The position numbers were made by a program, and so were the translations under genes. A stretch of DNA of 32,201 bases from a virus. Positions 2,924 through 30,795 of the stretch are shown piece by piece. The stretch spans positions 1-32,201 of IMG/VR virus record IMGVR_UViG_3300009488_000046, one strand, 5' to 3'. Numbering within the stretch: position 1 is the stretch's first letter; each line of letters opens with the position of its first letter. The notes below the pieces were generated by a model. The model did no database searches. It was given only the letters and a program-made list of their open reading frames with translations, and was not told the origin of the DNA.

Positions 2924-4250
2924 ATTGCTTGAAGAATATATCGCCACAAACGTCCCAGCATTAGAGGACATCGTTCGTGGCGGCATCCAGCAACCTGAAG
3001 GAGCGATGACCTTTCCAGGGCCACAGGAGCCAGAGGCACCCTTACAGGGCCAACCTATCGGCCCAGGTGGTGCGCCAACAGGGCCTATGGCGGCATTGCC
3101 AGGACCAGGTGGCATCAATCCAGCAGCAGCAGCAACTCCTACCTTTGCAGGCGCACCAGATCCAGGAGGTACGCAACCAGCGATTCCACCTGTGCAAGCT
3201 CAGCAACAGCCAGATAGAAGTGGTGAGTTCGAGCCTGGGCCTGACAGCTTTGCCGGTATGTCTGAGACCGCTAATCCAGAGGACATAAATAGCGCGACCG
3301 CCGCGCTGGAAAAAGCCCTCAATGAGAAGGGCTCGTCAATCGATGAGGAGCATGCCAAGACCACAGGCGGCGAGGTCGAGGAATCTGAGGACGATCCGGA
3401 AGGCAAGTCCAAAGGCGAGGGCCTGACCAGGCAGGAGAAGGGCCTGATTCTGATGGAGTTCGGCTTGAACCTGATGGCTCAGTCCGGTACGGGAGAAGGC
3501 ACCCTGGGCGGCGACATCGGCATTGCTGGTGGAGCTGCACTCAAGGGTCACGTAGGTCGCAAGCAAGCTGCAAAACAGGCCGCGATCGACGCTCAGGAGC
3601 GTGAGCAAAAGCGGCGTCTCACAGAGGCGCAGATCAAGAAAGCCGAAACTCCAACCGCAACGATCAAGACCGACAAAAGCGGAAACTACATAAGCATCTC
3701 GGAGGGTGTATCGACTCCGATCCTGGATGCAAGTGGTGAACCAGTTAGTGCGGAAAACGCCGAGAAATTTGCTTCTGAGGTTGATCGTCAGGCTTACGAA
3801 GAATTGGAGTGCGAAGGTCTATCAGGATCTGCATTGAAGGCATGTAAGCGTCGTGCGCTTGCCTATGGGACAGGCGGAGGAGCGAAGGTTGCATTCCCAG
3901 AATTAGAAGCGGCTGACCAGGTTGATCGAGTCAGAAAGGATCTTGACGATCCTGATCGTAAGAGTCAGAAACATCATGTGCCAAGCGCCAACAGAAAGAT
4001 TAAATGGAAGGATATGACTCCTGAGCAGCAGGATGAAGTGGCGAATACTCGTGTCGATAAGAGAATGGAAATCGTCCGTCGCTATGCCACTCAAGGTGGT
4101 GAAGGTGCTGGTGCCGCGAAGGATACAACCGGAATCCTGGAGAAACTGTCTCCTGACGATCGTGCCAGGATCAAACCAGGCAAGGTCTATACGTTAGAAG
4201 ATGGCAGGAAATTCAAGATGGTCAATGGTGTGCCTCAGATTGTAGAGTAA
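2916..4250 (+). CDS. Putative virion protein, Pro/Gly/Gln-rich N-terminus
   Basis: I place the start at ATG 2916 (MGRLLEEYI), because GGGAGG at 2903-2908 is correctly spaced. A TTG at 2895 would extend it by seven residues but has no such site. The protein is 444 residues. Residues 30-110 are low-complexity Pro, Gly, Ala and Gln. Residues 150-180 are acidic. A hydrophobic helix (GLILMEFGLNLMAQ, about residues 178-192) is followed by a Gly-rich patch and an Ala/Lys/Gln coiled coil. It overlaps the previous gene by 8 bases, and its stop shares one base with the giant gene. No enzyme motif was seen. By position it is probably an internal or ejection protein acting with the giant protein. Confidence 0.65.
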   Translation: MGRLLEEYIATNVPALEDIVRGGIQQPEGAMTFPGPQEPEAPLQGQPIGPGGAPTGPMAALPGPGGINPAAAATPTFAGAPDPGGTQPAIPPVQAQQQPDRSGEFEPGPDSFAGMSETANPEDINSATAALEKALNEKGSSIDEEHAKTTGGEVEESEDDPEGKSKGEGLTRQEKGLILMEFGLNLMAQSGTGEGTLGGDIGIAGGAALKGHVGRKQAAKQAAIDAQEREQKRRLTEAQIKKAETPTATIKTDKSGNYISISEGVSTPILDASGEPVSAENAEKFASEVDRQAYEELECEGLSGSALKACKRRALAYGTGGGAKVAFPELEAADQVDRVRKDLDDPDRKSQKHHVPSANRKIKWKDMTPEQQDEVANTRVDKRMEIVRRYATQGGEGAGAAKDTTGILEKLSPDDRARIKPGKVYTLEDGRKFKMVNGVPQIVE

Positions 4251-7200
4251 TGGCAGAGCTTTCAATCATATCCGAAGAAGACGAGGAGGAGCAGGAGCCT
4301 TTAGCGGCAGCTCCGAAGCCAGGGCTTTTATCGATTGTTGATGAAGCCGACGAACCAGAGATTCAGGCTCCACCTCCGGCTGCAATTCCAAAGCCAGAGC
4401 CCTTGTCGATTGTTGCGGAAACCGAAGATATAGCGTCTCCGGTGAGTCGTATTGATATTGGATCAGACGAGGAGCCTGGTTTCCTGACTCGTGCATTCGA
4501 TTCGTTCCAGGCGTGGCGTGATGAAACGAAAGCCGAGATGAAGCGAAACGCTCCTACTCGTGAAGAACGCCAGCAGATCACCAAGGACAACATCAAGCTC
4601 AATCGTGAGCTGTTCAGCAACAAAGGTGGTGGTCAGTTTAGCTTTGGCAGTTCCAGGCCGGCACCGCATTCTGCCCTGGTACGCGCCGGCTTGGAGGAGC
4701 CACCAGAAAATGAAGTAGAGAACGCACTGAATGATTATCTGCGCCCGAATGCAGATACTCCAGGCAGGCCATCTCCCGAAGGCCGGCTGAAGAAAGAGCG
4801 AGAGCAATGGGCCAGGTATCCAAAGGATCAAGCAGGTTTCCTGATCGATCCAACCAGGCCGATTGTTCAAAATCCAGATGGCAGTTCGTCCAGCGAACTC
4901 AGCATAACGATCGACGCTGATGGCCGCTGGTTCAATATCCCATCCATGGTAAATGGCAAGCAGGTTTCCCAGGAGGAGGCGATCGAGAGCGCCCGTAGCT
5001 GGGCGAAGAAAGGTTGGATCCATCCGAATTTTGCTACCCAGGAAGAAGCGGTGGCGGCGGCTGGGGCCCGTTCAGATTACCTTCCGACAGCCAGGGAGGA
5101 GTGGGCAAACCGCAAGCCTGACGAGCCGAAAGAACCGAGGGAAGAAAAGCCGGAAGATCCATGGGGTTTGGTGCTATGGGACACACTGACCAACGTACCA
5201 GCGGGATTCAAGCGGCAATATGGTGGCGCGAAGATGTTCCTGAATGCGCCACGAGATCTGGCATACATTTTGGAGGCTGCTTCAGACCAAGGTGTTGCCC
5301 CGGAGGATAGCTTTGCCCTTGAGGTAGAGGCTTACGTCCAGGGCAAGGAGCCGGCTGAGTATTACGGTGAGATGCTGAAAGAAGCGGAGAACAACGCCGA
5401 CCTTCAGGAAGGTCTGCGGATCCACCAGGAAGCGACTCAATACCTACAGAACTATCAACCGAATGTCCGGGAGGATTCGGCCAAGTATTACGCTGGAGCC
5501 ATCATCGAAGGCGCGATCAATATGTCTCCGATGCTGATCACGACTGCTGTAACCAGGAGCCCAACTCTTGGCCTTGCCGTTATGGGCGGCCAGGTATTCG
5601 CTGATCAGTACGCTGAGTCAATAAGCCGAGGTCGATCGCACAGTGAAGCAACGCTGGATGGCACCGTGTTTGCTGCTGCGGAGATGCTGACTGAGAAAAT
5701 ACCGCTTGGGATTCTGACCAAAGGAGGTGGCACCTTACTGAAGCGATTCTTCAAGGCTGGAGGCGCTGAGGCGATTCAGGAGCCTGTGACCCAACTTATT
5801 CAGGAAGCCTACACCATGGGCATCATCGAGGATGAGATGACCTTCGGTGAAGCCCTTGTTGAGATTGTCACAACCGAAGAAGGCAGGGCCATGCTGAGGC
5901 GATCAGCCATCATCGGTTTCGGTGTTGGTGGCACCCTGGCTACTGCGGTGCATCCACTCTACAAGGATGTGGTCGATGAAGGGGATGTTGATCCAGATGG
6001 TGGTCCTGGTTGGATTGATCTTCCTGAGACAGGGCCTGGTGGTAAACCACTGAAGAAAATGCCATCCGAGATGGACCGAGAAATCTCGAAGGAGGAGGCC
6101 GACGAGCTTGGTCTGTCTGAGGTGGATGTTGATGTGGATCTGTTGGAGCGTGTTGCTGCCGGCGACCCCCTGACAATCGATGAGCAATACACCCTGACCA
6201 ACGGGAAATACGGCATGTTTGTTGGTGCCGAGGAACGGGTGATGCTGCTGCCGAAGGGCCTCAAGGAACTCAAGAATCTGCGAGAACGGGCTGCCGGCGA
6301 AGAAATCATCATGGAAGGTGAGGAGATCACCATCAGGAGAACCGGCGAAGCGATCGACATTGCTGAGCCAGTTGAGCCAGGCGTGGTTCGACGAGCGCAG
6401 CGAGTGATGGAGGAATACGCCAAGGTCCAGGAAGCTCATCCAAAGGCCATGACAGCGATGACTCCGGCGCTGAAAACGAAGATCGATAATCGCTGGAGTA
6501 CCTTAACTCCTGAGCAGATGGACGAGATCATGACGGTCTTCGAGGAGTTTGAAAAGCTGCCAGCAGGAGACGAAGCAAAACTTAGGAAAGACCTCGAAAT
6601 CTTGTTGAAGCAATTCCAGGAGGCAGCGAAGGGCGAGCCAGACGAGGACGAGGAGTTGGTTCGATTCAAGAGACGAACCAGGCGCTTGTTTGCCGGCGAG
6701 CAAGTAACGAAAACGGAGCATGACACTGACAGGGTGACAGTCCCTGAGCGATTGAAAGATCTCGTGGGCCCGTTACCTGAACTACAAACGCATCCATTGG
6801 CCAAGGAACCAACAGCTCCGAAGCGAATGGTCAGTAATGAGTGGGGATCTGGTGTGCGGCAGCGACTCAGGATGGCCTATCCAGGCGTCACCGATATGGC
6901 AATCGAGACCGCTTTCCAGGAAGGTCAGGGCATTGAGGGCCTGCTTGTCAATTTACGCAACAAGCCTGCCTCTGTGACAGCCGTGCAGAATATCAATGCG
7001 ATGCTGGGAGCGATCGACAAGCTCGTCGAAAAGTACGACATGCTCAGGTCAGAGATCGTGGCAGAAGAAGACGAGATCAGCCCGATGGAAGTCTTCAGAT
7101 CTGATGTCGTTGAATCTCGCAGTTCCGTCAGGGCTCGCCTGGATGCCGTTCAGCGTCGAGTAGAGGAACCAAAGAGCCCAGAGCAGGCCGAGGCCGGCAA

Positions 7201-10200
7201 CTATCCGAAGGGGCATCTGCGAGTCGATTCAATTCCTGGAACGATTGAGACCAAGAAAGGCGGAACCAGGAAGGGTATTGATCGAAAGGGTAAGCCATGG
7301 CAATTCAAGATGAAGGATGCCTACGGCTACCTGAAGGGCACTGAGAGCAGGGAGCCTGATGGTCGAGGTGGCTTCGATCAGATCGATGCGTTCTTTGGTC
7401 CATACCTGGATTCAGGCCATGCGGTGATCATCAACCAGAAGAAGGATCCAGCGAAACCGATGTCCCTGGAGAACTTCGACGAGCATAAGATCATGCTCGG
7501 TTACCGGGACACCGAGGAGGCACAGGAGGCGTACCGTCGCAACTACACCGATGGTGGCGCACAGATGGGCTCAGTGGTCGCGATGACGACTGAGGAGCTG
7601 CGTGAGTGGCTGGAGACTGCCAATACGAAGACACCTGCCGTTCTATCGGAGGTGGTATTCGTGCCTGGCAGAGGTGAGGTGGACTTCCGTCCATTCCAGC
7701 CGGCCATTGACGCAGCTCAGGCGTATGCCGATGCCAATGACATCGAGTACGAACCAGCAAAAGAGCGAGCCAAGATCGACGTTCGCCGGGCTTCGATGAT
7801 TGCCAGAGAGTTCACCAGGATGGAGCATGATCCGAGTGATCCGGCTGTCGCGGCAGCTTACCAGGCAATGATCGATGAGACCCTGGCACAGTATGAGTAT
7901 GTCCTGGAGAGCGGCCTGGAGGTCGAGTTCGTCAAGGGCAAGGATCCGTACAGGAGCCCCAGAGATGCCATCCTGGACATCCGTGAGAACAATCACCTGT
8001 GGGTCTTGCCAACACGAGAAGCCTTTGGCACTAGGGCTGAGTTCGAGGCGATCGATAATCCCCTGCTGAACGAGACCAAGTACAAGATCTCTGGCAAGGT
8101 AGCTCTGGCGAACGACATATTTCGAGTGGTCCACGATTACTTCGGCCACCTGGCGAATGGCTTTGGCTTCCGCGCCAGGGGCGAGGAGAACGCTTGGCAG
8201 CACCACGCAGCAATGTATTCACCGCTTGCCAGGCGAGCCATGACCGTAGAGACCAGGGGCCAGAATAGCTGGGTCAATTACGGGCCTCATGGTGAGACGA
8301 ACCGCACAGCATCAGCCGCGGATACCGTGTATGCTGACCAGAAGATCGGACTCCTGCCTGTTTGGGTGTCCGAGGAGGGTAGATTAAGTGCCAAACGACC
8401 AACTCCTGAAAGCCGCCCAACAGAGGGCGGAGAGCTTGTTGCTCCGCCAGTCTCAGCAGAAGGGCGCATCACCCTCACGCACTACAGCCGGCGAGCCGAC
8501 ATCGACCGGATCGATCCCAGCTTCTATGGCCAAGGGATCCGCGGAGCCGAAGGGCAAAGGGCGCAAGCGTTCCCGGAAACCTGGATCGACCGCACGTACT
8601 ATGGTATCTCACCGGAACTTCCGGGTGGGTATCGGAAGGAATCGGGACTAGGGCCTGAGACCTATGAGACGAGCATCGACGCTCGTCTGTTGTATGACCT
8701 CCAGGTTGATCCTGAAAACCTGGCAGCAACTCCAGATCTGAATGAATCCGAGGCAGCCATCCGTGACGCCGGCTATTCCGGCTATTGGCTGAAGCACCCA
8801 AGTCTCGGCCTGGTGTCGGCTGTCTTTGATCCACTCGAAGTCGAGACGAAGAAAGGCCCATCAGCGAGAGCCAGGCGTAAGACGAATGCCGGCAGAGGTC
8901 AGTCCGTTGATGATGTGCAACAGATCCTACAAAAGATCTATCGGATGTTCCGCACTGTGCCTCCGGTACGAGTGGTCGAGTCCATCGAGGACCTGCCGCG
9001 GCATCTCCAGGTGTCTATGGAGGACGAGCATTCCAAGAAAAACACCACCGGGATGTATGACCAGGGTGCCTTCAACGATGACATTTACATCATTGCCAAT
9101 AACGTCAGCTCCATGGCGGAAGCGGTCGAGACCCTACTGCATGAAGTGGTTGGTCACTTCGGCCTCCGGCAAGTCATTCCGCCATGGCGATTCGATGAGT
9201 TCATGGACATGGTGGCCAAGTCGTTCCCGAAGCAGGTCAGAGAAGCAGCGCGGAGTTACGAGCTGGACTGGAATGATGTTGAGGAGCGCCGGATTGCTGC
9301 GGAGGAATACATAGCTCACATCGCACAACGAATCTTGGCTGGACAGACCGTATCGCAGAGAGCCAGGGAGATCTTGGATAGGATCGTCGAGGCTCTACAG
9401 AATGTAGTTCGCTGGATGACTGGCCAGGAGCAGATGTTCACCACTGGGCAGATCATGTCGGTCATTGCTCAGTCGAGCGACTTCGTGCAACGACCAGGTG
9501 GTTATCAGAGATCCAAGCGGCGAGGCCGGCTGCGTCATGTCAGTGCCCCATACTTCTTCTCCCAGGTGTGGACTGCATTCAACGAGACCGATACTAAAGC
9601 CACCTCTGTCGATGGCTGGTATCAGTTTATGAAGGGCCAACTCAAAAATGGAAAGATAAAGCAGGCCGAACTCGATTGGCTGGGCCTGGGTGATGCAAAG
9701 AATCCTGGTTGGCTGGCCGAGGCTACCTGGGGCCAGATGTATCAGCTCACATCAGACCACAGCTATGGACGACGCACCAACTTCGAGGATGTTGAGAAGC
9801 TGTTCCCACCACCAATGTTTGCGGTCTTCAAGGAGCAGCGTGAACTGGGCGCTGAGATTCAAGGGATTGCAGAGAAGGCCAAGGCTGCTCAGCAGCAAGC
9901 ATGGGAGGAAGCCTTTCCGACCACGGAAAAACAGGCCAAGAAATATAACCGCGAAGCTCAACAGTTCAAGGATGACTGGAAGAAAAATCCTGAAAACGAT
10001 CCGATGCAATTCCTTTCTGTCAATGAGCAGCGCGATGCTGCTTTGATGGATGAGCGGCACGAGGAGTTGACCAACCAGCTCCAAGAGTTTGGTCGCACAA
10101 AACCGAAGAAGATCCCAAGGCATATCATTCAATCGTATATCGAGCGCAATGGTGTGGACATCGAGGTCAAGGAACCTGGTAATCCAGAAGAAGACTACGG

Positions 10201-13200
10201 CCCACCTGACTGGAGCGAAGACTATCCGGATGAGGAGGATTCACCGGAGGAGGATACGTGGTACGACCATTGGGAGCCCATCGAATCAGAGAACTGGGGA
10301 TCCTATTTCGATACTCAGCAAAGAGAGGTCTGGGCAGAGCATAACTGGAATCCAGATCTTGAAGCTGATCCGGACATTCCGGAAGAAGCAGACATGGACA
10401 CCGAGGAGCTGAACGAAGCTCTCGGTGCCTGGGATGGGACCAGCGAAGAAGACATGGAGGAGGAAGCCAACGATAAAACCAGAGAGGCAATCGAACTAGA
10501 TTTCTACGACGAGGCGCGAGAGGAGTGGGAGAAAAAGAATACCAAGAGACGATGGTACTCCGGCAACTATCAGATGATGACGGATGACGATGGCGACTTC
10601 CGAATCTATGACGATCAGGGCGGTGACCTCGGTTATTACAGCACCTGGGAGGAAGCAGCGGACGCTGCCGAGGAGCATTACAACGAACAGACTCATGCCT
10701 GGGCAAGCTACATGCTCAAGCCTGCCGGCAAGGATTACGGGGTGCTGCTATTCCGTTGGGAAAATCCAGACAAGCAGTTGTTCACAGAGACCGCTCACTG
10801 GGAGGAGGACGACAATTTCGTAGCTCATGTTCGCTTCGATATTCGCAAAGATCCTGATGGCAACGAGGTTTTCTACATCGATGAGATGCAGTCCGATTGG
10901 CATCAGGAGATTCGAGATACGATCAAGGCCAAACTGAAAGAGATTCACGCTGAGCATGGTTTCGATAAGGATTACGACAACAGAGATGGCACCTTTGGTG
11001 GTGGCGAGGAATACGATGGCACACCTCCAGAGGTCATGTACGAGAAGGCCAGGGCTGAATCACTTGATAATCCAAGACTGAAGCAACTGCACAAAGATCT
11101 AGCTCAACAGGATTTTAAGGCCCTCGCTAAGTCGAGAGAGACGATCGTCGAAGAACTGAAATCCTGGCCAATGACGAAGGATATGTCAAAGCGTCTCCAG
11201 GCTGTCCTTACTGGCGAATACTCAAATAACTCAATCGATCTACTTGCTGGCTATAGAGCGGATCTGGCCTCAAGACAAGCGTCCGCTGACACTGCTTTGG
11301 AACAACAGGAAGGAGAGATTCAAGCCAAAGTATTTGAGGACCATGGCTTCTACCATTCTCTCGGTGAGGCGAGCAACAAACTGTTCGCGGCCTATCGAAA
11401 GATGCGAAAAAGTGAGCGCGGTGAACAGTATAACGCTGAGCTGATTTCCAGAGAGGAGTTCGATCAGTATGTGAATCAACAAGCCAGGGAATACGGTTTA
11501 ACCACTCGTTTGATCTATGCGACCAGAAATACAGGCGTGACTGCTGGTGTCGATTTTTCTGAATGGATGGAGAGACAGTGGGCAGCAGGCAACGCTCAAA
11601 CGATTGACCGTAAAGCTATTAACTCACCACGAGTTATATCTGAATGGGACGGAACGCCGCAGAAGGAAATCGAGGCCGAGCGGGAAGAAACGGCTATTGC
11701 CCAGCTCATGGATGAGACGCGAGATGAGACTGATCTGCCGGCAGGAACGAGGAGGCAAGGCAAGATATACAGGACCGCTCAAGCGAGAGATTTTAGTCAA
11801 GCGACCTGGACGAAACTAATCGAAGATGCAAGCGGCGATTCGTCTAACTGGGATCGACACAACGCATCTGAGTTGTGGAAGGTCTGGTCGAGTTTGGCTG
11901 ATGCGATGCACAAGATTTCGGCTGCTGACCGTCAGCCATTGCCTGGGCGTGGACCAGTGCCAGGCTTCTTTGATTACGATGCGCCGAGAGGTTTGCAAAC
12001 TACTGTCCGCGCTCAAATTCTGAGCTTTGATGAGAACATCGGGAAGTATCAAAGATATGCAGATGGCCAGAGCTTCGCGCCATTCGAGAAGGATTGGCAG
12101 CTACTGGTCATCAAACACATGATCGCTGAAGCGGCCAGGCGTGGCATGCCACGGATCTACTTTTCCAAGGGCGAGGTTCATGGGGTTCGCTGGTCAGGGG
12201 CTGAGTCGGTTGAATCACTTGAGTTTGTTAAGCATCCAATCCCTGAAGTTGAGCAAGATCCAACACCAGATCTTTTCACCGGAGAGATCACGCCGGTCAA
12301 ACGTGGAGATGCTTTCACGATCGATCTGTTAGTACCTGGAGCGAATCAACTCGACATGAAGACGACCAACAAGCAGCTTCGGAAGAATGTTGGTGATCGT
12401 GTAGCCAGGCTCATCCTGGGATCTGAAAAAGATAGAGGAACCATTCGAGCGGAAGACGCCGGTCTAAGGGGCATCCTGGTTCCACGAGGTAGTAGCAGGA
12501 CGTTGAGTGGATCCAGGACCACGTACAACGAGGTCGCAGTCAACAGCATCAACAAGTTCCTGAAGAAATTCAAAGGCAAGGTGAAGGATGTCTGGGTGCC
12601 TGGTGATAACAGTCAATCGTCCAGGGATGAGGCGGAACGGTTAGGTGTTGCCACTCTTGGTCAGCCTGGCAACGAATACGAAAAGTGGGATAACGCACGG
12701 CTCAGGCGACTGACGACTCCTGAAATCCATCGGTTTATCGAAGGTGGTCTCGACTCTGATCTAGTGAAACAAGGCCGGGAGATGTTTGACCTGGAAGATA
12801 GAGGCGTCTGGGGAATCGAAACACGAGCCGAAGATGGCTTTTACGAATTTAATACTCATGCCGGCTTCTTGCCAGGAAAACCAAGAGCGGTTGAGCGCCT
12901 GCACAATCTCATGCGACAAGAAGGCGAGAAGGACTGGGGTTACGAAGCCTGGGAGATTGAGATCACGCCGAAGCTGGAGGAGACCGCGAAGAAAGGATTC
13001 CCGCTATTCCACAAACGAGGCAAGCCGAAGACTGGCGACACTGGTCTGGACAATGCGCTCGAATGGGCGAGGAAGAATATCGGTCCATCAGGACCACGAT
13101 CGCTTGAGCGACTGCAAAGACAGATCAGCGAAATCATCAACATCGAACGTAAACAGATGAAGTTGGAGCAAGCTCTGATCGATCAGTTCGCCGGCCTGAA

Positions 13201-15985
13201 GTGGGCAATCAGACAAACGCATGGTCACGAGCTGCCGGCACAGATGTCAGCGTACAAGCAGGCTCACTTCACCACCAGCATGGATTCGCAAATGTACGTG
13301 TTCCTGACCCACGGCATTCCGGTGTGGGAGACGGTAACGACTGCCGAAGGTGAGGGCACGATCACTGGCATCAAGCCAGGCAGCAAGGGTCTCCTGGAGG
13401 TCCTGGAGCCGGTTGCTGACAAGATCACGTACTGGGGCTATTGGATGGCTGCCAGGCGAGCCGATCGTCTGCTGAAGGAAGGTAGGGAAGCTCTGTTCAC
13501 CCAGGAGCGTGTGGACGAGCTGCTGAAGTTAGGCGAGCGATTTCCTGAGTTCCAGGATGTGGCTGACGCATACAACGACTGGAAGACGCAATTCCTGGAC
13601 TGGGCATCAGAGGCAGGTGTCATCAACGAAGACACCAGGCCGCTGTGGGATCAGGCAGATTACGTGCCGTTCTACCGCATCAAGTCCGACGAGTTGGGCG
13701 GATCCTTTGCCAAGCGAGCCGGCATGGGCGGCCCAGGAATTGCGAACGTAGCACAACCGATCAAGCGTCTCCGTGGAGCCAAGCATCCGCTCGGTGACAT
13801 CCTGGAGAACATCATCGTCAACTTCCAGCACATCGCGACGACGACGATGAAGAACAAAGCTGCTCAGCTTGCAGTCGAAAATCTCAAAGATTCTGGGCTG
13901 CTCGTGCCGGCACCACCAACTGCTTTCCTGAAGGAGGAGTTCATCCCTATGGATGAGCTGAAGCGTAAGCTCAAGCAAGCTGGTGTTGACTGGGAAGCTA
14001 TGCCCACCGAAGCACTGGAGAGCATGCAGAAGATGTGGACCTTGCAGCGACCTGTTGGAGATGACTACATCTCGGTGCTGTACAACGGAAAGAAAAAATG
14101 GTTTGAGGTCCGAGAAGAAACGCTGCTGAGATCTCTCACAGCGATCAATGAGAAGAAATTTTCAAGCGTGATGGGCCGATTTTTCATGTGGCCATTGCGA
14201 AAGGTTAAGCGCCTCGGCACCACCTTGATCACGCTCGCTCCAGATTTCATGGCGGCGAACTGGTTCCGAGACATCTTTTTGGCATTCGCGAACTCGCGTC
14301 ATGCGAAGTTTCCCAAGCCATGGTCGGCAGCGACCGGAGCCTGGAAAGCGTTCACGAAGTCGCCTGAGATGGTGGCCATGATGGCTGCCGGTGGCGCTTT
14401 TTATTCTGGCTACATCAACGCCAACGATCCGGTATCAACGGTCAAGGCGATGAAGCGAGCCTTGCGTCAGACAGGATTCAAAAACCGAATCCTGGATGCA
14501 CCATGGAAGCTGTTCCACCTGTACAACGACATCGGTGCAGCATCCGAGAATGCCAATCGAATTGGTTCTGGCTACATCCCTGCGATGAAAGCTGGTGCCG
14601 GCAAGGCCGAGGCAATCTGGGAAGCCAAGGACTTGATGAACTTTGCCAAGCATGGTGATCATGCCGCGGTGCAATTCTTCGTTCAGTCCGTGATGTTCCT
14701 CAATGCCAGGGTCCAGGGCCTGGTTAGATACGGACAGCGATTCACGGAAGCCCCAGGACTGACGTTTGCCAAGTCAATGATGTATGCCATGGCTGTACTG
14801 ATGATCTGGCTGAAGAACAAAGACGATGATAGATACAAGGCACTACCTCCAGACGACAAGGATATGTACGTCCATTTCTGGACCAATGGCAAGCACTGGC
14901 GTCTCCCGAAATCCTTCGAGCTGGGCATGATCTTTGGTGTCGGCATCGAGCGCACGTTTGAGTATTACTACTCCAATGAAGATGACGCCGGCAAGGTAGC
15001 GATCGATCGAATGTGGTGGGTCATGGGTGAAGTTTTCAATATCCTGGGTCCGCGGTTCCCGTTTGTTCCTTTACCGCAGGCCATCACTCCGTTGTATGAA
15101 GCGACGAACAACTGGAACGCTTTCTTCCAATCACCGATCGTTCCTGAGTACATGCAGGACATAGCCGAAGTGAAGCCGGAGATCGTCTTTCGTCCTACCA
15201 CCAGTCCGACAGCTCGCGAGCTTGCCAGGGGATTACCGAAGTGGGCCCCAGCGACGTTAAGGAATCCAATACTTCTTGAACATCTGGTTCGTGGATATTT
15301 TGGGACCTTGGGCGCTTACGTGATGATGATGAGCGACGACTTGGTTCGGAAGTCGTTCGATTATCCAGCCAGGCCAGACCTCAGATGGGACAAGATGCCT
15401 GTAGCAAGGCGCTTCTATACTGGCGATGATCCGCCATCGAGGACTTCGTTCGAGGAGGTCATTTATCAGGTACGCCAGAATGCCAGGGAGATCGAGCGAG
15501 CTGTCAGCCAGATGGAGAAGCTGGAGATGGAGGACGAGATCGATGCGTTCATGGAGCAGCCATCAAAATACGATTCAACCTTCACCAACGAGCAGGTCGT
15601 CGAAGCATCCAAGGCAATGAAGCCCAGCTACAACGAGATGAAGCGTATTCGCAAGGAGATCACGGAGCTGTGGGAAGACGAGGAGATGAGCGGCGAGGAG
15701 AAGGGCATAGAGCTGAATAATCTTCTTCGGGATAAGTTGGAGGAAGCCAAGGAAGGTTGGTTGGAGCGACCAGGATCTTCGGAAAATAAAGAGGATGAGC
15801 CACCGAATGCTGGAGCTGTTATCCAGTTCGAGGCATTGCAGGACACCCTCATAGATCTATCGCCAGAAGACCGGGTTGATTATTTGGCTGAGCAAGGTCT
15901 GGATAAAACTGCGGATCTGTTGGTCTCATTGCCGACGAAGCCGAGCAGCAGGCTTCGCAATATCATGCGGGAGAACTCAGTCTGA
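4250..15985 (+). CDS. Giant polyvalent virion protein (3911 residues)
   Basis: A single frame of 3911 residues starts at ATG 4250, sharing one base with the preceding stop. Approximate modules are as follows. Residues 214-281 hold a 'NIPSMVNGK...' segment common in podovirus internal proteins. Residues 412-570 hold Ala/Gly-rich hydrophobic helices. Residues 983-1121 are pyrophosphatase-like (GNYPKGHLRV, KDAYGYLKGTE, FDEHKIML). Residues 1215-1380 are His-rich (HDYFGH at 1295-1300, ENAWQHH at 1313-1319). Residues 1406-1533 are ADP-ribosyltransferase-like. Residues 1555-1725 are a zincin metallopeptidase (HEVVGH at 1631-1636). Residues 1980-2085 are strongly acidic. A module with DEMQSDW at 2211-2217 resumes at PFEKDW from 2611. 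From about 2935 the C-terminal region resembles LPD38-type polyvalent domains, with NWFRDIF near 3335. Such proteins are thought to be delivered into the host with the genome. That role is family knowledge, and the domain edges are estimates. Confidence 0.85.
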   Translation: MAELSIISEEDEEEQEPLAAAPKPGLLSIVDEADEPEIQAPPPAAIPKPEPLSIVAETEDIASPVSRIDIGSDEEPGFLTRAFDSFQAWRDETKAEMKRNAPTREERQQITKDNIKLNRELFSNKGGGQFSFGSSRPAPHSALVRAGLEEPPENEVENALNDYLRPNADTPGRPSPEGRLKKEREQWARYPKDQAGFLIDPTRPIVQNPDGSSSSELSITIDADGRWFNIPSMVNGKQVSQEEAIESARSWAKKGWIHPNFATQEEAVAAAGARSDYLPTAREEWANRKPDEPKEPREEKPEDPWGLVLWDTLTNVPAGFKRQYGGAKMFLNAPRDLAYILEAASDQGVAPEDSFALEVEAYVQGKEPAEYYGEMLKEAENNADLQEGLRIHQEATQYLQNYQPNVREDSAKYYAGAIIEGAINMSPMLITTAVTRSPTLGLAVMGGQVFADQYAESISRGRSHSEATLDGTVFAAAEMLTEKIPLGILTKGGGTLLKRFFKAGGAEAIQEPVTQLIQEAYTMGIIEDEMTFGEALVEIVTTEEGRAMLRRSAIIGFGVGGTLATAVHPLYKDVVDEGDVDPDGGPGWIDLPETGPGGKPLKKMPSEMDREISKEEADELGLSEVDVDVDLLERVAAGDPLTIDEQYTLTNGKYGMFVGAEERVMLLPKGLKELKNLRERAAGEEIIMEGEEITIRRTGEAIDIAEPVEPGVVRRAQRVMEEYAKVQEAHPKAMTAMTPALKTKIDNRWSTLTPEQMDEIMTVFEEFEKLPAGDEAKLRKDLEILLKQFQEAAKGEPDEDEELVRFKRRTRRLFAGEQVTKTEHDTDRVTVPERLKDLVGPLPELQTHPLAKEPTAPKRMVSNEWGSGVRQRLRMAYPGVTDMAIETAFQEGQGIEGLLVNLRNKPASVTAVQNINAMLGAIDKLVEKYDMLRSEIVAEEDEISPMEVFRSDVVESRSSVRARLDAVQRRVEEPKSPEQAEAGNYPKGHLRVDSIPGTIETKKGGTRKGIDRKGKPWQFKMKDAYGYLKGTESREPDGRGGFDQIDAFFGPYLDSGHAVIINQKKDPAKPMSLENFDEHKIMLGYRDTEEAQEAYRRNYTDGGAQMGSVVAMTTEELREWLETANTKTPAVLSEVVFVPGRGEVDFRPFQPAIDAAQAYADANDIEYEPAKERAKIDVRRASMIAREFTRMEHDPSDPAVAAAYQAMIDETLAQYEYVLESGLEVEFVKGKDPYRSPRDAILDIRENNHLWVLPTREAFGTRAEFEAIDNPLLNETKYKISGKVALANDIFRVVHDYFGHLANGFGFRARGEENAWQHHAAMYSPLARRAMTVETRGQNSWVNYGPHGETNRTASAADTVYADQKIGLLPVWVSEEGRLSAKRPTPESRPTEGGELVAPPVSAEGRITLTHYSRRADIDRIDPSFYGQGIRGAEGQRAQAFPETWIDRTYYGISPELPGGYRKESGLGPETYETSIDARLLYDLQVDPENLAATPDLNESEAAIRDAGYSGYWLKHPSLGLVSAVFDPLEVETKKGPSARARRKTNAGRGQSVDDVQQILQKIYRMFRTVPPVRVVESIEDLPRHLQVSMEDEHSKKNTTGMYDQGAFNDDIYIIANNVSSMAEAVETLLHEVVGHFGLRQVIPPWRFDEFMDMVAKSFPKQVREAARSYELDWNDVEERRIAAEEYIAHIAQRILAGQTVSQRAREILDRIVEALQNVVRWMTGQEQMFTTGQIMSVIAQSSDFVQRPGGYQRSKRRGRLRHVSAPYFFSQVWTAFNETDTKATSVDGWYQFMKGQLKNGKIKQAELDWLGLGDAKNPGWLAEATWGQMYQLTSDHSYGRRTNFEDVEKLFPPPMFAVFKEQRELGAEIQGIAEKAKAAQQQAWEEAFPTTEKQAKKYNREAQQFKDDWKKNPENDPMQFLSVNEQRDAALMDERHEELTNQLQEFGRTKPKKIPRHIIQSYIERNGVDIEVKEPGNPEEDYGPPDWSEDYPDEEDSPEEDTWYDHWEPIESENWGSYFDTQQREVWAEHNWNPDLEADPDIPEEADMDTEELNEALGAWDGTSEEDMEEEANDKTREAIELDFYDEAREEWEKKNTKRRWYSGNYQMMTDDDGDFRIYDDQGGDLGYYSTWEEAADAAEEHYNEQTHAWASYMLKPAGKDYGVLLFRWENPDKQLFTETAHWEEDDNFVAHVRFDIRKDPDGNEVFYIDEMQSDWHQEIRDTIKAKLKEIHAEHGFDKDYDNRDGTFGGGEEYDGTPPEVMYEKARAESLDNPRLKQLHKDLAQQDFKALAKSRETIVEELKSWPMTKDMSKRLQAVLTGEYSNNSIDLLAGYRADLASRQASADTALEQQEGEIQAKVFEDHGFYHSLGEASNKLFAAYRKMRKSERGEQYNAELISREEFDQYVNQQAREYGLTTRLIYATRNTGVTAGVDFSEWMERQWAAGNAQTIDRKAINSPRVISEWDGTPQKEIEAEREETAIAQLMDETRDETDLPAGTRRQGKIYRTAQARDFSQATWTKLIEDASGDSSNWDRHNASELWKVWSSLADAMHKISAADRQPLPGRGPVPGFFDYDAPRGLQTTVRAQILSFDENIGKYQRYADGQSFAPFEKDWQLLVIKHMIAEAARRGMPRIYFSKGEVHGVRWSGAESVESLEFVKHPIPEVEQDPTPDLFTGEITPVKRGDAFTIDLLVPGANQLDMKTTNKQLRKNVGDRVARLILGSEKDRGTIRAEDAGLRGILVPRGSSRTLSGSRTTYNEVAVNSINKFLKKFKGKVKDVWVPGDNSQSSRDEAERLGVATLGQPGNEYEKWDNARLRRLTTPEIHRFIEGGLDSDLVKQGREMFDLEDRGVWGIETRAEDGFYEFNTHAGFLPGKPRAVERLHNLMRQEGEKDWGYEAWEIEITPKLEETAKKGFPLFHKRGKPKTGDTGLDNALEWARKNIGPSGPRSLERLQRQISEIINIERKQMKLEQALIDQFAGLKWAIRQTHGHELPAQMSAYKQAHFTTSMDSQMYVFLTHGIPVWETVTTAEGEGTITGIKPGSKGLLEVLEPVADKITYWGYWMAARRADRLLKEGREALFTQERVDELLKLGERFPEFQDVADAYNDWKTQFLDWASEAGVINEDTRPLWDQADYVPFYRIKSDELGGSFAKRAGMGGPGIANVAQPIKRLRGAKHPLGDILENIIVNFQHIATTTMKNKAAQLAVENLKDSGLLVPAPPTAFLKEEFIPMDELKRKLKQAGVDWEAMPTEALESMQKMWTLQRPVGDDYISVLYNGKKKWFEVREETLLRSLTAINEKKFSSVMGRFFMWPLRKVKRLGTTLITLAPDFMAANWFRDIFLAFANSRHAKFPKPWSAATGAWKAFTKSPEMVAMMAAGGAFYSGYINANDPVSTVKAMKRALRQTGFKNRILDAPWKLFHLYNDIGAASENANRIGSGYIPAMKAGAGKAEAIWEAKDLMNFAKHGDHAAVQFFVQSVMFLNARVQGLVRYGQRFTEAPGLTFAKSMMYAMAVLMIWLKNKDDDRYKALPPDDKDMYVHFWTNGKHWRLPKSFELGMIFGVGIERTFEYYYSNEDDAGKVAIDRMWWVMGEVFNILGPRFPFVPLPQAITPLYEATNNWNAFFQSPIVPEYMQDIAEVKPEIVFRPTTSPTARELARGLPKWAPATLRNPILLEHLVRGYFGTLGAYVMMMSDDLVRKSFDYPARPDLRWDKMPVARRFYTGDDPPSRTSFEEVIYQVRQNAREIERAVSQMEKLEMEDEIDAFMEQPSKYDSTFTNEQVVEASKAMKPSYNEMKRIRKEITELWEDEEMSGEEKGIELNNLLRDKLEEAKEGWLERPGSSENKEDEPPNAGAVIQFEALQDTLIDLSPEDRVDYLAEQGLDKTADLLVSLPTKPSSRLRNIMRENSV

Positions 15986-19013: not shown

Positions 19014-19496
19014 TTATTCCTCTCCGCTCCTGTAGTAGTAATGGACCTCATGACGGTCGTCTTCTACGTCCAGGTTGTGAACTATCTGAGCATTGGTCCC
19101 TCTCGGCCACATCTCGGCCTCGATCCAGTCGTCGCCTTTGACTGTCATCTCGACGTTGGTGCTGTACGTGTTCTGAAGGAACTCACTCACCTGCCAATAC
19201 GATTCATAATCTACGTCATCGAAGATCCAGATACCACTGGTGAGCATCCCATCCTCGAATAAGTAAACGAGCCTGAGCTTTTCGTTCAGGAGCTTGCCGC
19301 GATACCAGAGATCCTTGCAGCTTGCGCTGATCAGATCGTAGTCTTCGCCTTCCATGTGATTGGTGACGAACTCGATGCCGGCTCCCCAAGCGTATCCGCT
19401 GAAGCCAGACAGATCTTTCGGCGGCTGTGCCGAGTCCTGGCCGTATGCCAGGGCAGCCATGACCAGCATGGCTATTGGAAAGAAGAACTTTTTCAT
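19014..19496 (-). CDS. Sec-exported protein of unknown function
   Basis: This 160-residue protein starts at ATG 19496 after AAAGGG. The N-terminus MKKFFFPIAMLVMAALAYGQ is a standard Sec signal peptide (two Lys, hydrophobic core, small residues before a likely cut near AYG-Q). There is no lipobox Cys. The mature part begins with a GFSGYAWGAGIEFVTNHM segment like the 'F.G..WG....V' opening of small secreted bacterial proteins, then alternates strands and helices with a highly acidic character. It lies between a DnaQ-fold exonuclease and small cytoplasmic proteins. A periplasmic product in an early recombination operon suggests action on the host envelope, perhaps against superinfection. This is inference only. 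Confidence 0.75.
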   Translation of the reverse strand: MKKFFFPIAMLVMAALAYGQDSAQPPKDLSGFSGYAWGAGIEFVTNHMEGEDYDLISASCKDLWYRGKLLNEKLRLVYLFEDGMLTSGIWIFDDVDYESYWQVSEFLQNTYSTNVEMTVKGDDWIEAEMWPRGTNAQIVHNLDVEDDRHEVHYYYRSGEE

Positions 19497-19497
19497 G

Positions 19498-19548
19498 ACT
19501 GTACCCTTTATGCTATTTACACATAATCAATTAGACCACAGGATTGCA
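19498..19548 (-). promoter_or_regulatory. Internal promoter/regulatory candidate before the exported-protein gene
   Basis: The gap between the exonuclease and the exported-protein gene contains three blocks that also occur in the main divergent intergenic region. Written on the plus strand they are ACTGTACCC (19498-19506), CACATAATCAA (19520-19530) and ATTGCA (19543-19548). On the minus strand, AATAG followed 6 bases later by GGGTACAGT has the same spacing as at 26945-26962. This suggests a shared promoter or regulator site giving the exported protein its own transcription start. No start site is proven. Confidence 0.4.
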
Positions 19549-25578: not shown

Positions 25579-25877
25579 GCAGCTTCACCGAGTACATATT
25601 CCAGGTACTCGATGAGATAGCGACCATAGGTCACCAGGTACTCGTTCCCATCGAACGTGAACGACTCCTTCTCGGCGTCGTCGGCGGCCTTCCAGGCTAC
25701 CTTGAATTTCTCCAGCTTGGCTGGAGTCCAACTTACTGTCGTGCCGGTATCGTCGGCCATACGTTGTACCTCCCTGTGAATCAGGGCCAACTTCAGCTCC
25801 TGAAACTTGGCTGCGGCTGCGACGAACTTCTCGCCCAGCTCTCCGATTAAATCCCATTCCTCAAATTTCTTACTCAC
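25575..25877 (-). CDS. Hypothetical protein downstream of recT
   Basis: This 100-residue protein starts at GTG 25877, overlapping the recT stop by 8 bases. It begins MSKKFEEWDLIGELGEKFVA with amphipathic helices (AAKFQELKLALIHREVQR), then a SFTFDGNEYLVTYGRYLIEYL segment that may form a hairpin and helix. No catalytic motif is present. Start by overlap rather than by its own ribosome site implies translation coupled to RecT, so it may be a RecT partner. This is inferred from position only. Confidence 0.7.
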   Translation of the reverse strand: MSKKFEEWDLIGELGEKFVAAAAKFQELKLALIHREVQRMADDTGTTVSWTPAKLEKFKVAWKAADDAEKESFTFDGNEYLVTYGRYLIEYLEYVLGEAA

Positions 25878-26925
25878 TGATCACTGCCTTCGTTTTGTAT
25901 TCTGCACCCATCGCTTCCAGGTCAGGGTACGTCATGCCCCAGGCTTTAGCTGAGACAGTTACCTTCGGTTCATCCTCCGCGGTCTTCAGGATGTGGATCA
26001 GACCAGCGGTGTTGATTCGTTTCATGCAGGTCGCGAACTTGTCAGCCGGCAGCTCCTCCATCTTGTCGATGTTGAATGCCTTGTAGATCCGCTCGACCCT
26101 GAGCTTCGCCTTACGGGCCCCGGAGCGCAACTCTTTGGCCTGCTCCTCGGTGATCAGCTCGACCGGCTTCACATCGATCGGTGCATCCTTGTCCGCGTAG
26201 CCATCGGCAATGTGCGCCAACTGGACAGCATGCTCCAGGCGGCCAGTGCCCTTTGGCCAGGTCTTCTGCGCTCGCTTGATGACAGTCTTCTTCGCCATCT
26301 CGACGAACCAATCTTTCCATGGCCCAGCCTTATTCTTCTTCCACAGCTCGGACTTGTCACGGACGTTCTCGATCTCCTCGATCGACATGAACGTGATGTG
26401 CGGGAACTTGGAGCCGGAGATCTCAGCGATGGCATACGCGCCGATCACTTCGCCGCGCTGCTCCTCTTTCATGAACGGATCTGGCTCGTGATGGAGATGC
26501 GGATCACTTCCTGCTCGATACCAGAAGCGCCGGTCTTCTCGATCCATCTCTCGAACGACATCAGCTCGAATGCTGATGACTGCTCCACTGTCGGTCGCGA
26601 TAGCGATCAGACCCTGGTACATCGGATCACAATGGCACTCGTAAATCTTGAGCTGATTGTTGTATCGGGGAATCAGGGCGCAGTGCTTGAGCGCCGGATT
26701 GAGCGACAGTCCGATCGAGGCGATGTTGACCACTGCATCTCGAATGGAATGCGGCTCGCACTTCTGGAGCAGCGTGTTCCTGGCCAGGGCCTGGAGTGCG
26801 AACATCGACTCCTTCTCCCAGGTAACCAGGTGGCCTCCCTGTCCGGAGATCTTCTCAAACGGACGACGCGCACCAGTAACAGCATGCTGAACAACGGCAG
26901 GAAGTCGTGGCTTGTCATTTGACAT
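25870..26925 (-). CDS. recT: RecT-family single-strand annealing protein
   Basis: This 351-residue protein starts at ATG 26925 after GGAG. The RecT core is clear: IRDAVVNIASIGLSLNPAL, HCALIPRYN, CDPMYQGLIAIATDSGAV, VGAYAIAEI-like (GEVIGAYAIAEISG), HITFMSIEEIENVRDKSE, and GPWKDWFVEMAKKTVIKRAQ with K(T)WP. RecT proteins form rings or filaments that anneal complementary single strands and promote strand invasion. It is the first gene of the leftward operon, followed by a YqaJ exonuclease and SSB, the usual partners. The C-terminal 90 residues (VERIYKAFNIDKMEELPADK) form a helical extension also seen in larger RecT proteins. Confidence 0.95.
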   Translation of the reverse strand: MSNDKPRLPAVVQHAVTGARRPFEKISGQGGHLVTWEKESMFALQALARNTLLQKCEPHSIRDAVVNIASIGLSLNPALKHCALIPRYNNQLKIYECHCDPMYQGLIAIATDSGAVISIRADVVREMDREDRRFWYRAGSDPHLHHEPDPFMKEEQRGEVIGAYAIAEISGSKFPHITFMSIEEIENVRDKSELWKKNKAGPWKDWFVEMAKKTVIKRAQKTWPKGTGRLEHAVQLAHIADGYADKDAPIDVKPVELITEEQAKELRSGARKAKLRVERIYKAFNIDKMEELPADKFATCMKRINTAGLIHILKTAEDEPKVTVSAKAWGMTYPDLEAMGAEYKTKAVISE

Positions 26926-27062
26926 ATATGTCGCTCCAATTTCAACTGTACCCAGCCGCCTATTCTGACGACTTGACTACCAGATTGCAAGGGATTTGAC
27001 CACATAATCAAGGCCATATACCATGCGTAGTGTGGGTATGGTATGGAGTTAGGGAGAGGGGA
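26926..27062. promoter_or_regulatory. Divergent promoter region between the recT and replication operons
   Basis: This gap of 137 bases separates the leftward and rightward operons and must hold both promoters. On the minus strand TTGCAA and CAGAAT are 17 bases apart, a fair sigma70-type pair reading toward recT. On the plus strand TTGACC (26997-27002) is followed by TATACC/TACCAT boxes at 15-17 bases, reading toward the replication gene. Two TTGAC boxes occur in tandem. It also holds the three blocks shared with 19498-19548 and 30699-30763, and an inverted repeat. Promoter strength and start sites are not determined. Confidence 0.55.
27014..27046. repeat. Inverted repeat, possible operator
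   Basis: The left half CCATATACCAT (27014-27024) and the right half ATGGTATGG (27038-27046) are complementary apart from a two-base bulge, separated by 13 bases. The repeat overlaps the putative -10 of the rightward promoter and ends 16 bases before the start codon. It could be a repressor site or an mRNA hairpin near the ribosome site. No repressor gene is recognised nearby. Confidence 0.4.
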
Positions 27063-30638: not shown

Positions 30639-30698
30639 TGACCATGAAATAACCGACCCCTGGCGACCCGGAAGCTCCAATCCTATCCTGGCTCCGTG

Positions 30699-30763
30699 AC
30701 TGTACCCACTTTCTCGATGGCCTATTCTGGCAAGTGATTTTCCGGTCGCCTTTATTGCAAAGG
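30699..30763. promoter_or_regulatory. Third copy of the shared three-block motif
   Basis: Downstream of rusA, ACTGTACCC (30699-30707), GCCTATTCTG (30720-30729) and ATTGCAAAGG (30754-30763) repeat, in the same order and orientation, the blocks at 26945-26953, 26958-26967 and 26984-26993. Spacings differ (12 and 24 bases here against 4 and 16). The two copies flank the replication operon on both sides. No gene reads leftward from this copy, so it may be a duplicated boundary, a remnant promoter or a protein-binding site. Confidence 0.45.
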
Positions 30764-30788
30764 GCCCTCAATCGAGGGCCCTTTTCTT
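30759..30788. terminator. Rho-independent terminator after the replication operon
   Basis: A perfect 11-base stem, AAAGGGCCCTC / GAGGGCCCTTT, with loop AATC is followed on the plus strand by TTTTCTTT. It would stop the rightward replication operon. On the minus strand the stem is followed by TTTGC, a weaker tail, so it may also stop the convergent genes from the right. It lies 120 bases after the rusA stop. Confidence 0.85.
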
Positions 30789-30795
30789 TGGTCAC

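What the first reader, a model, noticed from the sequence alone, without database searches (positions are those of the whole stretch)
26945..26993. Three-block motif repeated at three operon boundaries
ACTGTACCC, GCCTATTCTG and ATTGCAA(A/G)GG occur in order at 26945-26993 and 30699-30763. ACTGTACCC, ATTGCA and CACATAATCAA recur at 19498-19548. On the minus strand the spacing AATAG-N6-GGGTACAGT is identical at the first and third sites. Repeats of this length by chance in such gaps are unlikely. They may mark a phage promoter class or a regulator site, and two copies flank the replication operon.
Basis: seen in the sequence. Interest (0 to 1): 0.6.

Follow-up and report, generated by a model that had tools for sequence, protein, structure and literature searches.

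The report
Phage small RNA silencing early genes
The repeated motif is most likely the two halves of an RNA control circuit: one copy sits in the loop of a small phage RNA at the end of the replication operon, and the others sit at the ribosome-binding fronts of the phage's early messages, where that RNA can pair with them and probably switch them off.

Summary
The motif is real: ACTGTACCC occurs three times in the window, against 0.08 expected. It recurs in all 12 related uncultivated phage contigs found, 35 exact copies against 0.8 expected. It is not one kind of site. On the other strand, GGGTACAGT starts the 5' leaders of the recT operon (26953) and a secreted-protein gene (19506), just after promoter-like hexamers. 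A diverged copy, GGGTATGGT, starts the replication operon leader (27034). The third exact copy (30699) is the reverse complement, inside a conserved ~125-nt structured RNA between rusA and an intrinsic terminator. There is one such 'hub' in each related phage whose sequence covers the place. The hub arm GCUCC-n2..3-ACUGUACCC can pair with leader GGGUACAGU and also with the Shine-Dalgarno GGAG. Across 41 leaders in 8 gene classes, 12 of 13 substitutions in motif positions 1-8 are exactly those that keep pairing through G-U wobble, which a DNA operator does not predict. Best reading: a phage small RNA, ending at the replication operon's terminator, that occludes ribosome binding on early messages. 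Not shown: transcription, processing, sign of regulation, host.

The parts
30662..30789 (+). Hub RNA: outer stem GGCGACC (30662-30668) with GGTCGCC (30744-30750), inner hairpin carrying the seed in its loop, then intrinsic terminator
   Evidence: Conserved in 8 phages; 95.3% of pair cells standard, covariation 0.147 vs 0.096 shuffled, 0/500; covariance model finds one per phage
30699..30707 (+). Seed ACUGUACCC, antisense to the leaders, in the apical loop
   Evidence: Invariant in 8 hubs; mean unpaired probability 0.58-0.70
30691..30695 (+). GCUCC, anti-Shine-Dalgarno half of the pairing arm
   Evidence: Invariant in 8 hubs; pairs with leader GGAG in the predicted duplexes
30760..30789 (+). 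Intrinsic terminator AAGGGCCCTCAATCGAGGGCCCTTTTCTTT
   Evidence: Sequence; conserved; helix 4
26945..26953 (-). Leader motif GGGTACAGT of the recT operon, 19 nt before ATG (26925)
   Evidence: predicted duplex with hub -27.5 kcal/mol, 0/500 shuffled leaders as good
26962..26990 (-). recT promoter: -35 TTGCAA (26985-26990), -10 CAGAAT (26962-26967), spacer 17
   Evidence: Sequence reading; the hexamer arrangement recurs in relatives
26933..26937 (-). recT Shine-Dalgarno GGAGC, second half of the target
19498..19506 (-). Leader motif GGGTACAGT of the secreted-protein gene 19014-19496, 1 nt before ATG
   Evidence: predicted duplex -24.9 kcal/mol covers the start codon, 0/500
27034..27042 (+). Diverged leader motif GGGTATGGT of the replication operon (start ATG 27063); both changes keep pairing by G-U wobble
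   Evidence: predicted duplex -27.0 kcal/mol, 0/500; relatives G002, G004, G008 and G010 have GGGTACAGT here
26996..27024 (+). Replication-operon promoter: -35 TTGACC (26996-27001), -10 TACCAT (27019-27024), spacer 17
   Evidence: Sequence reading

Best explanation
The 30662-30789 region encodes a phage regulatory RNA, probably the 3' end of the replication-operon transcript, released or stable up to its intrinsic terminator. Its apical loop exposes ACUGUACCC, preceded by GCUCC. This arm pairs with the 5' leaders of the phage's recT operon, replication operon, secreted-protein gene and, in relatives, several right-arm genes. These leaders begin with GGGUACAGU followed by Shine-Dalgarno GGAG (or the motif itself abuts the start codon). 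Pairing covers the ribosome-binding site and most likely blocks translation, giving negative feedback on early genes as replication-operon transcripts accumulate. Shown by sequence: conservation, the structured hub, the sense/antisense arrangement, and the wobble-preserving changes. Inferred: transcription, processing, translational repression, timing, any chaperone.
For: 1) Arrangement: each related phage whose sequence covers the place has one antisense copy, always in the hub before a terminator; the other exact copies are sense and precede a start codon, nearly all by 1-21 nt. Distant relatives with 32-35% DnaB identity have none. 2) Hub: conserved structure with seed in the loop, above shuffled and slid controls; the covariance model finds one strong hit per phage (80-161 bits; next 22). 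3) Leaders: motif positions 1-8 diverge 4.1% within leader classes against 27-30% in flanks. 4) Of 13 substitutions at positions 1-8, 12 are A5G, C6T or A7G, the only three that keep pairing with ACUGUACCC; P = 7e-5 even if every change were a transition; flank transitions:transversions are 89:147. 5) The hub arm pairs with motif plus SD at -21 to -34 kcal/mol in 24 leaders of 4 phages, 0-2 of 500 shuffled leaders as good. Against predicted gene starts, motif leaders rank at or near the top.
Against: No transcript data and no cultured relative. No conserved promoter directly upstream of the hub, so an independent RNA is not certain. The seed is invariant in all 8 hubs, so no compensatory seed-target swap was seen. 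One T6 leader (G008) has a pair-breaking change (G8T), and position 9 varies. Some leaders without the motif reach similar duplex energies in G008 (-23.8). Duplex energies were computed without accessibility costs. Counts treat leaders as independent; some changes may share descent.
Confidence: 0.72

Rival explanations
1. DNA operator: a phage transcription factor binds GGGTACAGT at about +2 to +12 of several promoters, and the 30699 copy is a further binding site.
For: The motif sits at a fixed place after the -10 hexamer (7-10 nt), where repressors can act, and is shared by unrelated genes.
Against: The 9-mer is not palindromic; its orientation is fixed relative to genes except in the one antisense copy; that copy lies in a conserved RNA fold before a terminator, not at a promoter; tolerated substitutions are those allowed by G-U wobble; the hub also carries an invariant anti-SD GCUCC.
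Confidence: 0.12
2. Same RNA pairing, but the outcome is not repression: pairing at the 5' end protects or activates messages, or the many leaders act as sponges that titrate the hub.
For: The motif lies at the 5' end of the transcript, where pairing could shield it from decay; the hub is made with the replication operon that it would also target.
Against: The predicted duplex covers SD or start codon in the leaders tested, which favours repression.
Confidence: 0.13
3. The hub works only in cis, as a 3' UTR that pairs with the leader of its own replication mRNA (5'-3' bridging), and the other copies are incidental.
For: The replication-operon leader carries the motif or a near variant in the phages where it could be read.
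Against: The motif is also constrained in seven other leader classes, on other transcripts.
Confidence: 0.02
4. Chance or simple promoter duplication without function.
Against: 35 exact copies against 0.81 expected in 12 contigs, at orthologous places, with flanks diverged 27-30%.
Confidence: 0.01

Closest known systems
C4 RNA of phages P1/P7 and related immunity RNAs (Rfam RF01695; Citron and Schuster 1990, cited in PMC2864571; mechanism from own knowledge)
   Same: Phage-encoded structured antisense RNA that pairs with short sequences in phage leaders at or near ribosome-binding sites.
   Different: No match to the C4 covariance model; hub lies at the 3' end of the replication operon, not upstream of its target; many target operons; no lysogeny genes seen in what was examined.
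P22 sar and lambda OOP RNAs (listed in review PMC12197685)
   Same: Small phage RNAs that inhibit phage genes by pairing.
   Different: Each acts on one main phage target; the hub has a common 9-nt box in up to eight leader classes.
VpdS of phage VP882 and PreS of lambda (PMC12197685)
   Same: Trans-acting phage RNAs, Hfq-dependent.
   Different: Reported targets are host or mixed; no repeated leader box in the phage's own operons is described in the passages read. Hfq binding of the hub is unknown.
Bacterial sRNAs with C-rich loops that bind Shine-Dalgarno sequences, such as the Staphylococcus UCCC-motif RNAs (own knowledge)
   Same: Loop with CCC and anti-SD pairing on many targets.
   Different: Here a specific 9-nt seed plus a separate CUCC, in a phage, with co-conserved target boxes.

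Membership tests
C4 antisense RNA (RF01695) | Match to the family covariance model | tested here: not met
   Not among hits at E<=10 in the window hub; no hit in six phage records
C4 antisense RNA (RF01695) | RNA lies upstream of its target in the same operon | tested here: not met
   Hub follows rusA at the 3' end of the replication operon
Trans-acting base-pairing sRNA | Short seed complementary to several mRNA leaders near the RBS | tested here: met
Trans-acting base-pairing sRNA | Seed unpaired in a conserved RNA structure | tested here: met
   (prediction; mean unpaired 0.58-0.70)
Trans-acting base-pairing sRNA | Ends in an intrinsic terminator with a U run | tested here: met
   30760-30789; conserved
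Trans-acting base-pairing sRNA | Own promoter or processing site at the 5' end | tested here: inconclusive
   No conserved sigma70 site upstream; processing cannot be seen from sequence
Trans-acting base-pairing sRNA | Chaperone binding (Hfq/ProQ) and expression | not testable with these tools
   No transcript data; host unknown
DNA operator of a transcription factor | Substitutions without regard to RNA wobble | tested here: not met
   12 of 13 changes at positions 1-8 are wobble-preserving
Any Rfam family | Match at gathering score | tested here: not met
   no match in the window

The most novel reading that the evidence does not exclude
A previously undescribed phage RNA family acts as a single post-transcriptional master regulator: one 3'UTR-type RNA pairs with a common box placed at the 5' end of most early operons (recombination, replication, accessory genes and possibly a gene next to the terminase), so that timing of the infection programme is set by RNA-RNA pairing instead of a repressor protein.
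Probability: 0.5. Interest if true: 0.8.

Novelty: new variant of a known kind. Interest (0 to 1): 0.7.

Why it matters
Known phage regulatory RNAs mostly control one phage gene or host genes. A single RNA with a dedicated target box in up to eight leader classes of its own phage would be an RNA counterpart of a repressor regulon, visible from sequence in uncultivated phages. It would offer a way to look for similar hub-and-box circuits: a repeated leader word whose reverse complement lies in a loop before a terminator.

Tried and rejected
Collection scans for AATAG-N6-GGGTACAGT (111 hits) and TTGCAAT-N-GGGTACAG (119 or more) returned mostly unrelated contigs but added G011 and G012. Scan for GCTCCNNGACTGTACCC: 12 hits, 8 of them in this phage group, the other four without sense copies or the surrounding hub sequence. 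tRNA and Rfam searches gave nothing above cut-off. recT profile against genome contigs: no relative, so no prophage or host. Hub DNA against cultured phages: none. The three-block reading was rejected because blocks 2 and 3 at 30699 have other identities. A conserved promoter directly upstream of the hub was sought and not found. Base preceding GGAG against the hub base (CUCCG versus CUCCU in G007) suggests intermolecular co-change, but by my own count it is too few to be significant.

Full report
Setting. The window is the whole of one uncultivated virus record of 32,201 bases. It is a tailed phage by gene content: RecT (25870-26925 -), SSB, a YqaJ-type nuclease, a replication initiator, DnaB helicase, RusA, a DNA ejection-like protein and a 3,911-residue protein. 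No close cultured relative was found: the best RecT matches in the phage collection are 31-38% identical, and hub DNA has no match there. Related contigs in IMG/VR are 70-79% identical in DnaB and 75-88% in RecT. I refer to them as G001-G012. G008 and G009 are identical at these sites and counted once. G001 and G012 overlap at both ends (233 and 144 bp, 98-99%), so they look like two parts of one phage of about 71.7 kb.

Observation. ACTGTACCC is at the three stated places and nowhere else in the window. Shuffles give 0.08 on average, none of 100 reaching three. Twelve contigs (the window included, G009 left out) hold 35 exact copies where 0.81 are expected. The wider three-block motif does not hold up: in relatives the third block at 30699 reads ATTCGAGAAGG and is the foot of the terminator, and CACATAATCAA near 19498 is not conserved.

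Anatomy. Read on the coding strand, the motif is GGGTACAGT. In front of recT it follows TTGCAA-N17-CAGAAT by 8 nt, and the recT ATG is 19 nt further on with GGAGC between. In front of gene 19014-19496 it ends 1 nt before the ATG. In front of the replication initiator the window has GGGTATGGT, 9 nt after TTGACC-N17-TACCAT and 20 nt before ATG 27063, while G002, G004, G008 and G010 have GGGTACAGT there. In relatives, further copies lead right-arm genes and a gene just after the small terminase subunit. The window ends before the right-arm copies, and the class next to the terminase (T8) was not located in the window. Since transcription usually starts about 7 nt after a -10 hexamer, the motif should be the first stretch of the mRNA (inference).

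The antisense copy. At 30699 the plus strand carries ACTGTACCC between the end of rusA (30638) and a strong terminator (30760-30789). All eight phages that cover this place conserve GCGACC...GCTCC..GACTGTACCC...GGTCGC and the terminator, though the DNA just upstream is not conserved. The predicted fold puts the motif in an apical loop in all eight. On the RNAalifold structure 95.3% of pair cells are standard, against 35-57% for slid versions; five pairs change on both sides, and the covariation score exceeds all 500 shuffles. The structure was derived from these sequences, so the cells-paired control favours it; the covariation is modest, because the outer stem hardly varies. The covariance model built from it finds one strong copy per phage.

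Test of RNA against DNA. I aligned 41 leaders of eight classes on the motif. Within classes, positions 1-8 differ from the majority in 4.1% of cells, flanks in 27-30%. The changes are A5G three times, C6T three times, A7G six times and G8T once, with five more at position 9. Opposite ACUGUACCC, A-to-G at 5 and 7 and C-to-T at 6 are the only changes at positions 1-8 that keep a pair. Chance gives 12 of 13 with P = 8e-10 at the flank transition rate, and 7e-5 if all changes were transitions. Allowing more generously for shared descent (for example W and G003), 8 of 9 would still give 1e-6 to 2e-3. A protein that merely tolerates change at positions 5-7 remains possible but does not explain the antisense copy in a structured RNA.

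Extent of pairing. The hub arm GGCUCCGUGACUGUACCC pairs with the motif and then, across a short internal loop, with the Shine-Dalgarno GGAG. W recT gives -27.5, W replication -27.0, W 19014 -24.9 kcal/mol. Across 24 leaders of four phages the range is -21.4 to -34.5, with 0-2 of 500 shuffled leaders as good. Among crudely predicted gene starts, motif leaders come at or near the top in each phage, though in G008 a few others come close. These are duplex energies without the cost of opening structure.

Mechanism. The simplest account is occlusion of the ribosome-binding site by a trans-acting RNA made from the 3' end of the replication operon, or from a promoter inside rusA. The result would be feedback that turns down recombination, replication and other early genes. 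Repression, timing and a chaperone are inferred. Activation or sponge effects are possible and listed as a rival.

Relation to known systems. The hub works like base-pairing regulatory RNAs and resembles in logic the C4 RNA of P1/P7, but it is not a C4 RNA by the covariance model or by position. A 2025 review of phage sRNAs, searched by keyword (PMC12197685), showed phage RNAs with one phage target or with host targets. I found no description of a phage RNA with a repeated box in many of its own leaders; the searches covered only the open-access library.

Noticed in passing
26973-26990 - and leaders of relatives: A second conserved block, TTGCAATCnTGnnGTCA, overlaps the -35 of most of these promoters, and a version lies about 10 bp further upstream in the 19014 class; it may be a DNA site for a phage regulator.
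   Followed up: partly
L178 (G001) and L310-L312 (G012): Two IMG/VR contigs of one metagenome overlap at both ends and look like one circular-map phage of about 71.7 kb; G007 is of similar size (72.8 kb).
   Followed up: partly
30690-30731 +: In the hub, GCC(A/T) can pair either with the upstream GGC that closes the seed loop or with the downstream UGGC, so two conformations may compete.
   Followed up: no
L010 12919 region (G007 hub) and G007 leaders: The G007 hub reads CUCCU where others read CUCCG, and four of five of its leaders examined have A before GGAG; suggestive of intermolecular co-change but too few to test.
   Followed up: partly
4250-15985 +: A 3,911-residue ORF matches several giant phage protein families (DarB-like, virion structural, endolysin matches).
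   Followed up: no
19014-19496 -: Target gene with a signal-peptide-like N terminus and no family match, conserved in relatives at 50-63% identity.
   Followed up: no
L174 11413 + (G008 30413), G007 33110 -, G012 47713 -: A leader class (T8), just after the small terminase subunit gene in G008, carries the motif or wobble variants, so control may reach beyond early genes.
   Followed up: partly
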